Assembly: GCA_021202075.1 (NCBI GenBank)
Contig: JAJQDT010000027.1
Coordinates: forward strand, 22,061-86,060
Direction: 5' to 3'
Source: Lachnospiraceae bacterium
GTDB lineage: Bacteria; Bacillota; Clostridia; Lachnospirales; Lachnospiraceae
Length of the DNA stretch: 64,000 bases
Part shown: piece by piece, positions 2,756 to 6,449 of the stretch
Numbering within the stretch: the first letter of the stretch is position 1
Layout of the letters: the number at the start of each line of letters is the position of its first letter
Made by a program: the position numbers and the translations under genes
The notes under the pieces: generated by a model
The model's input: the letters and a program-made list of their open reading frames with translations, nothing else
Databases searched by the model: none
Told to the model about the DNA's origin: nothing

Positions 2756-3208
2756 TTATACCCGCAGCAATGACTGACTGCCGCCATCCGTTTTTTCGAG
2801 TTCTTCCACCGCCCGGCAGATCCGCAGAAGCGCCTCTGCGTCTTCCATTCCCAGTCGGTCTACGAGCCGGGCGATCTCTTCCCGTTTTTCCTTTCGCCGA
2901 TGCTCCACACGCTGCCTTCCCAGATCGGTCAGCTTCACATTCACCCGCCTGCGGTCACACCCTTCCGTCTCTCTGACAATGAGCCGATCCTCTTCCAGCT
3001 CGTTTAGAACTGCGGTTACACGCGGAGTCGTGACACACATGTAGTCGCGGAGGTCTCCGGGGGAAGCCTGTCCCCCGTGCGTGTACAGATAATTGAGAAC
3101 CATCCCCCGCCCGGAATCCGATTCTCCGGAACGCTTTCTTCCTCTCCGGCCCGCGCGCATTTTCTGAATCGCTTCCGCGACCTCTTCAATCAGCTGCTCT
3201 CTGTCCAT
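2756..3208 (-). CDS. MarR-family transcriptional regulator
   Basis: The 150-residue product starts MDREQLIEEVAEAIQ and contains a winged helix-turn-helix: SPGDLRDYMCVTTPRVTAVLNEL is the helix-turn-helix and the wing is EGCDRRRVNVKLTDLG, with the DxRR feature typical of MarR. A C-terminal helix (REEIARLVDRLG) would make the dimer. I set the start at the ATG at 3208 because AAGGAGG sits 7 bases upstream; the frame continues open to 3379 but that stretch is a low-complexity repeat leader. It is the last gene of the nitrogenase-like set and co-directional with it, so it plausibly controls that set. Inducing ligand unknown. Confidence 0.8.
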   Translation of the reverse strand: MDREQLIEEVAEAIQKMRAGRRGRKRSGESDSGRGMVLNYLYTHGGQASPGDLRDYMCVTTPRVTAVLNELEEDRLIVRETEGCDRRRVNVKLTDLGRQRVEHRRKEKREEIARLVDRLGMEDAEALLRICRAVEELEKTDGGSQSLLRV

Positions 3209-3452
3209 CCGTGCCTCCTTCTGATATCTTTTTTCCGTCATTCTCCGATCGTTCTCCCGTTTCCTGTTGTTCTTCTGTGACCCTTTGATCGTTCTTTTGT
3301 TGTTCTTCGGTGTTCTTCGGCCATTTTTTGACCGCTCTTTGACCTCTCCCTGACCGCTTTTCGGTTGTTCCCCGGTCACCCAATTGAATGTGGTTCATCA
3401 AAGCCACTTCGGTCAACCCAGAGGATACATCATATCTATCAGAGAGTTTCCT
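3209..3452 (-). promoter_or_regulatory. Repeat-rich leader upstream of the MarR gene
   Basis: The 244 bases between the MarR start and the NifH-like stop are dominated by short direct repeats. On the plus strand TGACC recurs at 3329, 3340 and 3351, exactly 11 bases apart, with an inverted GGTCA near 3374, and TGTTCTTCGG is repeated head to tail at 3301-3320. Spacing at one helical turn is what a cooperative binding site would show. Whether the protein is the MarR product is inference. Confidence 0.4.
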
Positions 3453-4274
3453 TCACCCAATCGGAATATATTTCATCAGAAGCTCTTCCAGTTCATCGTT
3501 TGAAATCGGTGTCGGGACGGAAAAGGCAGTGTTTTCCGCAATCGCCTGCGCGAGGGCGCGGTATTCGTCCGCCTGCGCGGATTCCGGCGCATATTCGATG
3601 ACCGTCTTACGCTGAAGCTCTGCATGCTGCACCAGATTGTCACGAGGGATAAAATAAATCATCTGCGTATTGATTTTTTCCGCGAAGGCGGCCACAAGCT
3701 CTCTCTCCCGGTCCACCATCCGGGAATTGCAGATGAGGCCGCCCAGCTTTGTCTTGCCGGTCTCGGCGTAGCGCCGGATTCCTTTGCAGATATTGTTTGC
3801 CGCGTACAGGCTCATCATCTCGCCTGAACAGACGATATAAATTTCCTTCGCTTTTCCTTCCCGGATCGGCATGGCAAAACCGCCGCACACGACGTCGCCC
3901 AGAACGTCATAAAGGACATAATCAAGATCCGGCGTATAAGCGCCCAGGCTTTCCAGCAGGTTGATGGCTGTGACAATTCCGCGCCCCGCGCAGCCGACAC
4001 CCGGCTCCGGACCGCCGGATTCTACGGCTTTGATTCCGTGAAAACCTGTGTAGAGAAAATCCTCCAGTTCCACTTCATCCTCGTCCTTTTCCCGCATCGT
4101 ATCCAGTACGGTCTGGCGCACATGACCGCCCAGAATCAGTCTTGTGGAATCCGCTTTGGGATCACATCCCACGATCATCAGTTTTTTCTTATCTTCCGCC
4201 AGGGCGGCCGCCAGATTCTGTGACGTGGTAGATTTGCCGATACCGCCCTTTCCATAAATTGCGATCTGTCTCAT
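3453..4274 (-). CDS. Nitrogenase iron protein-like ATPase (NifH/BchL/ChlL superfamily)
   Basis: This 273-residue protein is a clear NifH-family reductase. It has the P-loop GKGGIGKS (residues 8-15), switch [11 protein letters not shown] (36-45), cluster ligands Cys95 in GVGCAGRG and Cys130 in [12 protein letters not shown], and the Arg of the GRG motif that is ADP-ribosylated in classical NifH. Such proteins form a homodimer with one bridging [4Fe-4S] cluster and deliver low-potential electrons by ATP hydrolysis to a NifDK-like partner. The partner candidates lie just upstream in the same direction (4502-5851 and 6030-6449). No nifK, nifE, nifN or nifB is present, so nitrogen fixation is unlikely; it belongs with the nitrogenase-like (group IV type) reductases. 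Substrate unknown. Confidence 0.9.
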
Positions 4275-4328
4275 AAATTTATTCCCCTTCCTTTACACCT
4301 TGATTAATACAGGAAGCTCGCGGCCCTT

Positions 4329-4500: not shown

Positions 4501-4501
4501 C

Positions 4502-5851
4502 CTACAACCCTTCCCGATTCAGCCAGGCATCCAGCGCGCCGCCTGTCATATTAAACGCATCCAGCGATTCCACCGGAAACATACTGCCCGTGTTGGGGAT
4601 TTTCACCCAGCGCACTTTTTTCTTCACCAGCGGCTGCAGATCGCCATCCGCGAATATCATGCGGACAGACTCTGCGTTGGCCTGCCCGGCAAAATCATCC
4701 TCCCCGGTCAGTTTCCGGTCGCCAGGCTCCATATACGCCCTGTCCATATCATAAAAGCTGAGCACCCGGATCTTTTTTTCTCCGCGGCGAAACAGTTCCC
4801 GGCGGATCGCGTTGGCTGTAAACTGCTCCCCGACAATCAGGGTTTCCGGTTCTGTGTCCATCGCGTTTCCTTTCATCAGGTCCTCGTCCGGTTTTCCGGC
4901 AGCTGTCGCTGATTCCGTTTTCTTTATCAAATCTTCATCTGGTCTCCCGGCGGAGGTTCCCAATCCGGCCTCTTTCAGCCTGCTTCTCAGCGACTCCACA
5001 CTGGTCGCTCCAAACGGCGCTCCCGCCAGATAAGGAATCCCAAATTCGCTCTCCATATATCTGGCCAGGCGCAGGCCGGATTCATTCGCCACCAGATTCA
5101 GCGCCGCAGCGGACGCCATCTTCAGGTTTTCCGTTGTCTCCTTCCATCCCCAGCGGGAGAGAATCTGAATGCCCTCCTGATTAAGGAGCGATTCCAGATC
5201 CGCAAAAGATTCCTTTGCCCAGTCGATCGTGTTGGCTCCGAGGATATTCAGCGAGCCGGGAATCGTCCGGCTCGGTAAGAGCAACAGCCGTCCCATCGCC
5301 TCCAGGGTGCAGCTGATCCCGTACAGATAATCCTTTTCACCGTCAATCTTTACATATGCGGCAGGAAGTCCGCTTTGCGCGGAAGCGCCTTCTCGCTGCG
5401 CGGAGGACAAACCTTCTGTAATTTTCTCCGCCGCGTATTCCAGATCCGAGCCAATCATGGACGCGGACGGCCCGTAAGCAAGCAGGACAAAATTGGGGGA
5501 GAGCCGCTTTTCACCCTTTTCAAACGCAAGCATCACTTTCTTTTCCGTGCCGGAAATAATATCCTCATTGCGGATATCCGAATTGAGGACTCGCATCCCG
5601 GGGATGATGCCGCCAAAGCCGCCCCGGCCGCCTCCGTGTCCATGTCCATGACGGCCTTCTATTTCAGGCCGTCCGCCTCGCTCCGTGCGGCCGTCCATCC
5701 CCGGCCTCCCATGTCCGTCCCTGCCAAATCGGAGAGGTTTATAGGTGCTCGAATCATCAATCAGCCCCATTCCTTCTGTCTCATTCATCACTGCCTCGAA
5801 TCCCATCAGATCCGAAAAACAGGGCGGCAGCACTTTCCACAATCGCTTCAT
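4502..5851 (-). CDS. Nitrogenase component 1-like (NifD/NifK-like) large subunit
   Basis: The 449-residue product resembles the Oxidored_nitro family (PF00148). The start KVLPPCFSDLMGFEAVM matches the PP-F/Y opening of component 1 proteins, GTEKKVMLAFE corresponds to the FGGEKKL segment, and FVLLAYGPSASMIGSDLE corresponds to the conserved C-P-IGDD region, but the cysteine is replaced (YGPSAS). The C-terminal part has LIVGEQFTANAIRR and a final AFNMTGGALDAWL typical of these folds. Between residues 44 and 80 is a Gly/His/Arg-rich insert (GRDGHGRPG, GRHGHGHGGGRGG) that could bind metal. Cysteines are few: Cys11 and Cys181. GAGGAG precedes the ATG. The neighbour at 6030-6449 may supply the missing cluster ligands. 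Function unknown. Confidence 0.75.
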   Translation of the reverse strand: MKRLWKVLPPCFSDLMGFEAVMNETEGMGLIDDSSTYKPLRFGRDGHGRPGMDGRTERGGRPEIEGRHGHGHGGGRGGFGGIIPGMRVLNSDIRNEDIISGTEKKVMLAFEKGEKRLSPNFVLLAYGPSASMIGSDLEYAAEKITEGLSSAQREGASAQSGLPAAYVKIDGEKDYLYGISCTLEAMGRLLLLPSRTIPGSLNILGANTIDWAKESFADLESLLNQEGIQILSRWGWKETTENLKMASAAALNLVANESGLRLARYMESEFGIPYLAGAPFGATSVESLRSRLKEAGLGTSAGRPDEDLIKKTESATAAGKPDEDLMKGNAMDTEPETLIVGEQFTANAIRRELFRRGEKKIRVLSFYDMDRAYMEPGDRKLTGEDDFAGQANAESVRMIFADGDLQPLVKKKVRWVKIPNTGSMFPVESLDAFNMTGGALDAWLNREGL

Positions 5852-6029
5852 ATATTAAATGTCTCCTCTTCTTTTCTTAAAAACTTTACTTCAAAATAGC
5901 TGACCAATTCCGAAAAGCAGAACGCAGGTACTAGTTTCAATCGTACAAGACGCGCTTCTGCTCGTGAGACCCAAGCATTAGGTCTCGATCCCCGTTGCGC
6001 TCATACGAAACAATCTCTTGAATAAACTG
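5852..6029. other. Gap with a short hairpin
   Basis: The 178-base gap between the two nitrogenase-like genes has a hairpin GAGACC/GGTCTC (5966-5971 with 5981-5986, 9-base loop) flanked by GC-rich sequence; no T-tract follows on either strand, so it is not a standard terminator. Confidence 0.4.
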
Positions 6030-6449
6030 CTACTCATGATCCCCGAATTCCAGATGTGCGTCTTCAAATATGGTAAGATCAATGTCATGTTCCTGTTTTA
6101 CCCGTTCCTTCAGCAGCTCTCCATCCGTCGATAAAATAACCCACTGACAGCCGCAGGCAATGACAAACTGCTTTGTTCCGCGTTCCTGAGATAATTCCGC
6201 GAGCGCATTGACAATCTGGTTCAGGTAACGCCCGCTGGAAAAATCGCTCATCGACGGACAGAGTACCGCCGCCCGCCCTTCGCGCATCAGCGACCCGATT
6301 CGCCGGTATGGCTTGTGGCGCAGGCAATTCACCGAGCCCACAAAAAGCAGCATTCCCTTCTCCGAGAGCTCTTCAATCAGGTTATCTCCTTTTCCTCCGG
6401 GGTGCGGCATATGTCCCGGGTCCAGATTTCTATTGTTTTCCCTGTTCAT
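6030..6449 (-). CDS. Small nitrogenase component 1-like protein (half-domain)
   Basis: The 139-residue product appears homologous to only the N-terminal cluster-binding part of a nitrogenase component 1 chain. LLFVGSVNCLRHKPYRR aligns in style with the region around a P-cluster cysteine, FSSGRYLNQIVNALAEL with FGGxKKLxxxI, and FVIACGCQWVILSTDGELL with the E-C-P-IGDDIE segment. Cysteines are at 42, 64, 99 and 101. It is the first gene of the minus-strand set, with GGAGG six bases before the ATG. If it dimerises with the large subunit at 4502-5851, which lacks the equivalent cysteine, the two would form a split component 1. This assignment rests on motif order only; sequence identity to known NifD/K is low. 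Confidence 0.55.
   Translation of the reverse strand: MNRENNRNLDPGHMPHPGGKGDNLIEELSEKGMLLFVGSVNCLRHKPYRRIGSLMREGRAAVLCPSMSDFSSGRYLNQIVNALAELSQERGTKQFVIACGCQWVILSTDGELLKERVKQEHDIDLTIFEDAHLEFGDHE

What the first reader, a model, noticed from the sequence alone, without database searches (positions are those of the whole stretch)
2756..6449. Minimal nitrogenase-like system with its own regulator
A NifH-like reductase with all cluster and P-loop motifs is co-directional with a NifD/K-like large subunit, a small component 1-like protein and a MarR regulator. No nifB, nifE/N or second full-length subunit is present. The set fits neither nitrogen fixation, nor chlorophyll synthesis, nor the MarBHDK methylthio-alkane reductase order, nor CfbCD (F430) because the organism is not a methanogen. 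It looks like an unassigned nitrogenase-like reductase of gut Clostridia.
Basis: partly seen in the sequence, partly recalled or inferred. Interest (0 to 1): 0.85.

Follow-up and report, generated by a model that had tools for sequence, protein, structure and literature searches.

The report
Half-size nitrogenase-like reductase operon
A gut bacterium carries a small, conserved operon for a nitrogenase-like enzyme in which one of the two large subunits has shrunk to a single cluster-binding domain; it probably drives a difficult reduction of an imported compound, and its NifH could be miscounted as a nitrogen-fixation gene.

Summary
In detail: small (6030-6449), NifDs (4502-5851, PF00148), NifH (3453-4274) and MarR (2756-~3208), minus strand. 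Small-NifDs-NifH recurs in 14 of 14 related loci, MarR in 11; low dN/dS. Small is the N-terminal, cluster-binding domain of subunit A of ordinary Lachnospiraceae nfl operons (NifH-A-B); NifDs is a complete subunit B. So component 1 has lost about two thirds of one subunit. Small keeps both of A's invariant Cys (15/15); NifDs lost B's one invariant Cys and has a new one, Cys11 (15/15), at the NifD Cys62 spacing. The NifH groups with nitrogenase NifH, not nfl NifH (100/100). A 12/12 promoter precedes an 18-bp dyad found once in the genome, in all 11 named loci with MarR and none of 3 without. A siderophore-type FecB gene is in 11 of 11 genus genomes with the operon, against 1 of 5 close relatives without. 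Best reading: a MarR-controlled, ATP-driven low-potential reductase of an imported metal chelate; substrate unproven. New variant of a known kind.

The parts
6030..6449 (-). small subunit: N-terminal (cluster-binding) domain of component-1 subunit A, 139 aa, invariant Cys42 and Cys101
4502..5851 (-). NifDs: complete component-1 subunit B homologue (PF00148), 449 aa, with a variable Gly/Arg/His-rich linker and invariant Cys11
3453..4274 (-). NifH: nitrogenase-type Fe protein, 273 aa
2756..3208 (-). MarR-family regulator (listed ORF runs to 3379; start near 3208 inferred)
6541..6568 (-). sigma-70 type promoter, TTGACA-16-TATAAT (12 of 12 matches)
6524..6541 (.). 18-bp dyad TTAANTNANNTNANTTAA, predicted MarR operator at the downstream edge of the -10
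4325..4496 (.). 36-bp tandem repeat, 4.8 copies, in the NifDs-NifH gap

Best explanation
This is a two-component, ATP-driven reductase of the nitrogenase superfamily with a pared-down component 1. NifH, bound to ATP, passes low-potential electrons to an Fe-S cluster at the interface of small and NifDs. The cluster is held by small Cys42 and Cys101 and, it is proposed, NifDs Cys11, with perhaps an Asp as fourth ligand. The electrons go on to a substrate bound in the three-domain NifDs. MarR represses the operon at a single dyad operator and presumably releases on binding a ligand. The most likely substrate is a compound brought in by the FecBCDE-type importer that accompanies the system: a ferric siderophore or similar metal chelate, reduced to release or alter the metal. 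Shown by computation: homology, domain loss, cysteine pattern, selection, NifH affiliation, uniqueness of the dyad, co-retention of FecB. Inferred: cluster type and ligation, electron path, repression, substrate. My own odds: architecture about 0.75; siderophore or metal-chelate substrate about 0.35.
For: Core unit in 14 of 14 loci. dN/dS 0.06-0.22 small, 0.11-0.22 NifDs, 0.05-0.08 NifH, in pairs among 7 or 8 loci. Small aligns to subunit A; NifDs to subunit B over 389 columns at E=5e-51. Cys counts: Cys42 and Cys101 of small in 15/15 mini and 14/14 full-length A; the B Cys (NifD Cys88 place) 14/14 full-length, 0/15 mini; Cys11 15/15 mini, 1/14 full-length. Cys11 maps 26 residues before the B cysteine in 14/14 B subunits, the spacing of Cys62-Cys88 in 3 of 3 NifD checked. 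Promoter 12/12; dyad once in 5.55 Mb, reversed control 0. Fec: 7 of 14 named loci have FecCD-cluster genes upstream (importer identified by Pfam in L007). In the genus FecB at >=96% identity is in 11 of 11 genomes with the operon and 1 of 36 without, three more of the 36 having it at 62-76%. Among the 16 genomes with rpoB >=94% (limit set at the gap seen in the results) it is 11 of 11 against 1 of 5, Fisher p=0.0027. Nearest NCBIfam model of the binding protein is SstD, ferrated catecholamine, far below cut-off (117.5 against 450). Fetched nfl loci carry FecCD and FecE in 9 of 16. Sporomusa termitida pSPTER has an nfl set with an importer, an esterase and TonB receptor genes.
Against: G506 has the FecB gene but no operon. 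In 4 of 11 genus genomes, the window's included, Fec is on another contig or 13 kb away. I did not test whether L009-L012 have Fec elsewhere in their genomes; their stretches show none beside the operon. Fec-type importers also carry haem, B12 and other ligands. The other 7 of 16 nfl loci show no FecCD hit, and the three scanned there sit with hydrogenase-maturation genes, so Fec linkage is not universal. The tree of B does not resolve whether the mini system came from a Fec-linked lineage. Other neighbours also recur: a MATE transporter in 8 of 14 and two flavoproteins in 6 of 14 named loci, so nearby genes can recur through kinship. No complex could be modelled; the NifDs model is poor (pLDDT 55) and its residues 1-100, with Cys11, are unresolved.
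Confidence: 0.55

Rival explanations
1. Same architecture, but the substrate is an imported tetrapyrrole or corrinoid, as in the DPOR, COR and CfbCD enzymes, which likewise need no NifB-type cofactor (recalled).
For: Foldseek's best solved matches are DPOR chains for both proteins (subunits named). The NifH scores 395.6 against a CfbC cut-off of 402. B12 and haem importer models are among the sub-threshold hits of the Fec genes.
Against: NifDs scores far below the CfbD and BchB cut-offs (14 against 268; 42 against 490). The nearest model for the binding protein is a siderophore type.
Confidence: 0.2
2. It is a scaffold or maturase for a metallocluster (NifEN-like), fed by the importer, rather than an enzyme acting on a small molecule.
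For: Some fetched nfl operons sit beside hypF, hypD and hypE-like genes; Dos Santos 2012 (PMC3464626; passages, section 11) suggested roles in metallocluster assembly.
Against: No gene beyond the core recurs in all 14 mini loci (the MarR gene in 11), so no target enzyme stands out; no NifE/N in the genome.
Confidence: 0.13
3. It reduces a sulfur compound, as do methylthio-alkane reductase and the isethionate NFL.
For: The subunit-A profile's best PDB matches are chains 9d9u_A and 9fmg_A (E=5e-16), methylthio-alkane reductase by their titles. A PF03313 gene follows NifH directly in L010 and L011 and one gene later in L012.
Against: Those enzymes use nitrogenase metalloclusters (PMC12552129: title and start of abstract in listings; details recalled). 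Here NifDs has lost its only family Cys, and the linked importer is Fec-type.
Confidence: 0.09
4. A decaying remnant of a full nfl or nif system without function.
For: One subunit is cut short; contig C66 of the same genome holds a broken nfl-type NifH.
Against: Low dN/dS in pairs among 7 or 8 loci, a conserved dyad and retained cysteines in 15/15.
Confidence: 0.03
5. It fixes nitrogen.
For: NifH passes the nifH equivalog cut-off.
Against: The genome's one PF00148 protein is NifDs, far below the nifD and nifE cut-offs.
Confidence: 0.01

Closest known systems
Nitrogenase-like NifHEN-like operons of Firmicutes (group IV; Dos Santos 2012, PMC3464626, the clade described with Coprococcus catus and Dorea longicatena; identity of the clades not tested here)
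   Same: Homologous A and B subunits; two conserved Cys in A and one in B as that paper describes; ABC transporter genes beside 9 of 16 fetched loci.
   Different: A reduced to its N-terminal domain; B's Cys lost and another gained; NifH of nitrogenase type; own MarR and dyad.
DPOR (BchLNB/ChlLNB)
   Same: Closest solved folds (subunit N for small, subunit B for NifDs); an Fe-S site shared unevenly between two subunits (recalled).
   Different: Both DPOR subunits are full size; NifDs scores 42 against the BchB cut-off 490.
CfbCD (F430 synthesis)
   Same: NifH close to the CfbC model (395.6, cut-off 402); a simple two-component reductase (recalled).
   Different: CfbD model 14.4 against 268.4; a separate small subunit; relatives are Lachnospiraceae, not methanogens.
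MarHDK methylthio-alkane reductase
   Same: Subunit A's best PDB sequence matches.
   Different: Two full-length component-1 chains there (519 and 466 residues); one here.

Membership tests
Mo nitrogenase (nif) | NifD, NifK, NifE and NifN present | tested here: not met
   One PF00148 match in the genome at E<=0.001; NifDs scores nifD 30.6 against 653.6, nifE 41.8 against 505.1
Mo nitrogenase (nif) | NifH of the nitrogenase type | tested here: met
   TIGR01287 452.2 against 394.35; tree
Mo nitrogenase (nif) | NifB | not tested
   Not searched genome-wide
Group IV Nfl (NifHEN-like) | Two full-length PF00148 subunits | tested here: not met
   Small is 139 aa without a Pfam match; of 18 proteins scanned (14 full-length A, 4 small) 14 match PF00148; no C-terminal part of A elsewhere
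Group IV Nfl (NifHEN-like) | A: two conserved Cys | tested here: met
   15/15 mini and 14/14 full-length
Group IV Nfl (NifHEN-like) | B: single conserved Cys | tested here: not met
   0/15 mini against 14/14 full-length
Group IV Nfl (NifHEN-like) | Cluster IV NifH | tested here: not met
DPOR | BchL and BchB models over cut-off | tested here: not met
   BchL 219.3 against 345.15, BchB 42.3 against 490.35
CfbCD | CfbC and CfbD models over cut-off | tested here: not met
   395.6 against 402 (narrowly); 14.4 against 268.4
Any of these | Fe-S cluster at the subunit interface and ATP-dependent electron transfer | not testable with these tools
   needs spectroscopy and assay

The most novel reading that the evidence does not exclude
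A component 1 of the nitrogenase superfamily smaller than any I know of: a nitrogenase-type Fe protein recruited to a half-dismantled nfl partner whose cluster site was rebuilt by moving one ligand from the Cys88 to the Cys62 place, working as an ATP-driven reductase of imported ferric siderophores, a nitrogenase-type enzyme of iron acquisition.
Probability: 0.22. Interest if true: 0.85.

Novelty: new variant of a known kind. Interest (0 to 1): 0.62.

Why it matters
It suggests that a nitrogenase-type component 1 can work with one subunit cut to a single domain, so it could help define the least protein needed for ATP-gated low-potential electron transfer and give a small construct for structural work. 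Its NifH passes the standard nifH model although the genome shows no NifD, NifK, NifE or NifN, so nifH surveys of guts could count it as a nitrogen fixer, the pseudo-nifH problem of PMC8597730 (passages). The dyad and the Fec link make the substrate question testable.

Tried and rejected
Nitrogen fixation, chlorophyll-type and F430-type membership (below cut-off) and decay were rejected. The His/Gly-rich stretch of NifDs (about residues 55-80) was considered as a metal-binding loop and dropped, because its length and His content vary between loci. A tree of B subunits was meant to show whether the mini system descends from Fec-linked or hydrogenase-maturation-linked nfl operons: it is a polytomy. 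In that tree the label 'nflHyp' was set by gene sizes; Pfam showed HypF, HypD and a HypE-like gene in L053 and a HypE-like (AIRS) gene in L051 and L062 only. The control gene window:14270-16216, at >=87% over its full length, is in 4 of 11 genomes with the operon (G000, G501, G494, G504) and 1 of 36 without (G491); partial matches of 97% in G506 and 86% in G500 were not counted, and six more genomes without the operon have it at 79-83%. It does not follow the operon as FecB does. Fec co-retention is still partly confounded by kinship: the 11 genomes lie within the rpoB >=94% group, 5 of the 47 genomes had no rpoB match, and G491 is 65% complete. The Fisher value over the whole genus (6.9e-10) ignores kinship and is not relied on. 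Eight paper searches listed nothing whose title or abstract start describes a single-domain component-1 subunit or a nitrogenase-type siderophore reductase; only open-licence PMC papers are held, so this is no proof of absence in print.

Rows left out before counts: the NifH tree used 69 of 74 hits plus the window; omitted were the second piece of L006, the L026 and L103 partial pieces, and the duplicates L030 and L052. Of its 29 nitrogenase-type rows, the nif neighbours were seen for L067, L099 and L100 only; 25 were labelled by the nifH model. Nfl stretches were fetched for 17 of the 39 other genomes with a match, the better-scoring ones by choice (one proved a true nif operon, L067), not a random sample. 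Cysteine counts used 14 of these 16 nfl loci (L056, a longer single gene, and L068 not used). dN/dS pairs with undefined dS are not available, and several kept pairs have dS above 1.2 and are rough. The dyad pattern was derived from the aligned promoters, so its presence there is partly by construction; its uniqueness in the genome and absence in L010-L012 are not. The promoter scan as a whole found 4 sites against 3.7 in shuffles; only the one at 6568-6541 is 12 of 12.
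Full report
OBSERVATION. The large protein is PF00148 (E=3e-20) and the NifH is PF00142 (E=1.5e-126); the small protein has no Pfam match. The assembly (5.55 Mb, 173 contigs, 95% complete, 5.5% contamination) has a single PF00148 match at E<=0.001, and a profile of A subunits plus small finds only the small gene and a cross-match to the large one. So no detached remainder of the small protein and no NifD/K/E/N pair was found. NifB was not searched for.

A CONSERVED UNIT. A scan of genome contigs (84,980 species genomes; a single-protein query, so close relatives only) gave 14 loci, titled Lachnospiraceae or Clostridiales MAGs. 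All 14 have small, large (called NifDs here) and NifH in that order; 11 have the MarR gene. In two of them NifH is not seen whole: L006 is interrupted near residue 191, and the L012 frame begins near residue 30. In whole-genome samples the system is in 11 of 47 genomes of the window's genus, its own included, and small is in 2 of 397 sampled from the family, again own included. A further, divergent member (G512, locus L116) has NifH 77% and NifDs 32% identical and is cut by its contig end. dN/dS is 0.06-0.22 for small, 0.11-0.22 for NifDs and 0.05-0.08 for NifH; the MarR gene is looser (0.21-0.45) (pairs among 5 to 8 loci, some with high dS).

WHAT THE SMALL PROTEIN IS. From 20 stretches I had 16 nfl loci of Lachnospiraceae with NifH and component-1 genes. 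In 14 of them I took the pair A (416-485 aa) then B (380-444 aa). Profile comparison puts small on the N-terminal part of A (E=1.7e-5, probability 79%, 95 columns) and not on B (E=0.14), and puts NifDs on B (E=5e-51, 389 columns). The gene order A-B is kept as small-NifDs. Small on its own is not significantly matched to NifD or NifK (E=0.11 and 0.27), so its homology rests on the A family. The predicted fold of small (pLDDT 75, pTM 0.71, 10 sequences) has 2xdq_A, subunit N of DPOR, as first match (prob 1.00, TM 0.62, E=3.2e-3). No match reaches E 0.001 and KaiC chains follow closely with lower TM. NifDs (pLDDT 55, 12 sequences) matches 3aer_D, a DPOR chain of the B type, at E=2.4e-12 over 399 columns, with a loose superposition (TM about 0.4, rmsd 16).

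CYSTEINES. Counts over 15 mini and 14 full-length systems: two Cys of A are invariant in both (small Cys42 and Cys101); a further A cysteine, in 12 of 14, is Gly in 15/15 mini. Cys101 corresponds to the Cys154 place of NifD by profile alignments. Cys42 probably corresponds to the Cys88-type place, on a weak alignment and on the pattern that Dos Santos et al. 2012 describe for such proteins (PMC3464626, section 11 read). The one invariant Cys of B aligns with NifD Cys88: 14/14 full-length, 0/15 mini. Instead NifDs has Cys11 in 15/15, against 1/14. The residue aligned with Cys11 lies 26 residues before the B cysteine in 14/14 B subunits, and in three NifD sequences a Cys also lies 26 before the Cys88 place (the numbers 62 and 88 are recalled). 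G512 keeps a Cys near the old site; its N-terminus is off the contig. I read this as a rebuilt cluster site; that is inference.

THE NIFH IS OF ANOTHER STOCK. The window NifH is 63-72% identical to 29 nitrogenase-type NifH. It is 49-57% identical to intact nfl NifH, with a fused-type outlier at 39%; the broken C66 copy is at 45% and five others at 50-52%. In a 70-row tree the 15 mini NifH form one clade (100/97), joined to the 29 on a 100/100 branch, apart from 20 nfl rows (100/99). Whether it is sister to all nitrogenase NifH or lies inside depends on rooting (93/74). One of the 29, from Treponema saccharophilum pTS2, lies next to cysteine-synthase-type genes, with two component-1 genes nearby.

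REGULATION. Upstream of small is a 12-of-12 sigma-70 promoter (6568-6541), followed by the dyad TTAACTAATGTGAATTAA (6541-6524). The generalised dyad occurs once in the window against 0 in 100 shuffles, once in the whole genome, in all 11 named loci with MarR, and in none of the 3 without (L010-L012). This points to a repressor devoted to this operon; binding is not shown.

CONTEXT. In 7 of 14 named loci FecCD-cluster genes precede the operon; in L007 they are two FecCD permeases, an ATPase and a binding protein. In the window's genome three of these genes (95-99% identical to L007) lie on contig C66 instead. FecB at >=96% is in 11 of 11 genus genomes with the operon and 1 of 36 without (three more of the 36 at 62-76%). 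Limiting to the 16 genomes with rpoB >=94%, it is 11 of 11 against 1 of 5 (p=0.0027). In 4 of the 11 it is not adjacent, so linkage alone does not explain it, though kinship may contribute. A control gene from the window does not follow the operon in this way (4 of 11 against 1 of 36 at >=87%, partial matches excluded). A MATE transporter recurs in 8 of 14 named loci and two flavoproteins in 6; I did not follow these. Transporter models for the Fec genes are mostly iron-siderophore ones, all those listed being below cut-off. Of the 16 nfl loci 9 have FecCD and FecE hits. Of the other 7, L053 has HypF, HypD and a HypE-like gene, and L051 and L062 have a HypE-like gene; four were not scanned for this. 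Both kinds of link are remarked on in PMC3464626.

MECHANISM AND NOVELTY. The best reading is an ATP-driven reductase with a reduced component 1, induced through MarR, acting on an imported metal chelate. Tetrapyrrole reduction, cluster assembly and sulfur chemistry remain open. Ferric catecholates have very low potentials (recalled), which would suit a NifH-driven reductase. The system fails two defining features of its nearest relatives (two full-length subunits; the B cysteine) and its NifH is of another group, so I file it as a new variant within the nitrogenase superfamily, not as a member of any named enzyme. The paper searches listed nothing that describes it by title or abstract start. 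PMC8597730 (passages read) reports that nifH without nifDK, over half of it in Clostridia, inflates counts of nitrogen fixers; this NifH could add to that.

Noticed in passing
window 4325-4496: 36-bp tandem repeat, 4.8 copies at 91% match, fills most of the NifDs-NifH gap; role unknown.
   Followed up: no
L049 (G000 contig C66) 7683-8630: A broken nfl-type NifH (195 aa, lacking an internal stretch and the usual C-terminus) followed by a 114-aa ORF that by eye looks like the start of a binding protein, on the contig that also holds Fec importer genes; described only.
   Followed up: partly
L116 (G512 contig C219): Divergent member: NifH 77%, NifDs 32% identical, a Cys kept near the site lost in the others, with a family-5 binding protein and a permease downstream.
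   Followed up: partly
L053, L051, L062: nfl operons beside hydrogenase-maturation genes (HypF, HypD, HypE-like in L053; HypE-like in L051 and L062).
   Followed up: partly
L102 (Sporomusa termitida pSPTER): Plasmid-borne Fec importer-NifH-A-B-esterase set between two TonB-dependent receptor genes.
   Followed up: partly
L098 (Treponema saccharophilum pTS2) 5351-17438: A NifH 70% identical to the window's beside cysteine-synthase, radical SAM and NifX-like genes, with two component-1 genes nearby.
   Followed up: no
L010 12267-13559 and counterparts in L011, L012: A PF03313 (serine dehydratase alpha type; scanned in L010) gene lies just after NifH in L010 and L011 and one gene further on in L012, the loci that lack MarR.
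   Followed up: no
L006 and L012, NifH: The NifH frame is interrupted in L006 (near residue 191) and begins only near residue 30 in L012; assembly error or mutation not decided.
   Followed up: no
L007 13379-19769 and counterparts: A MATE transporter (8 of 14 loci) and two flavoproteins (6 of 14) recur near the operon in part of the set; the window has its own MATE gene at 6941-8344, divergent from small.
   Followed up: no
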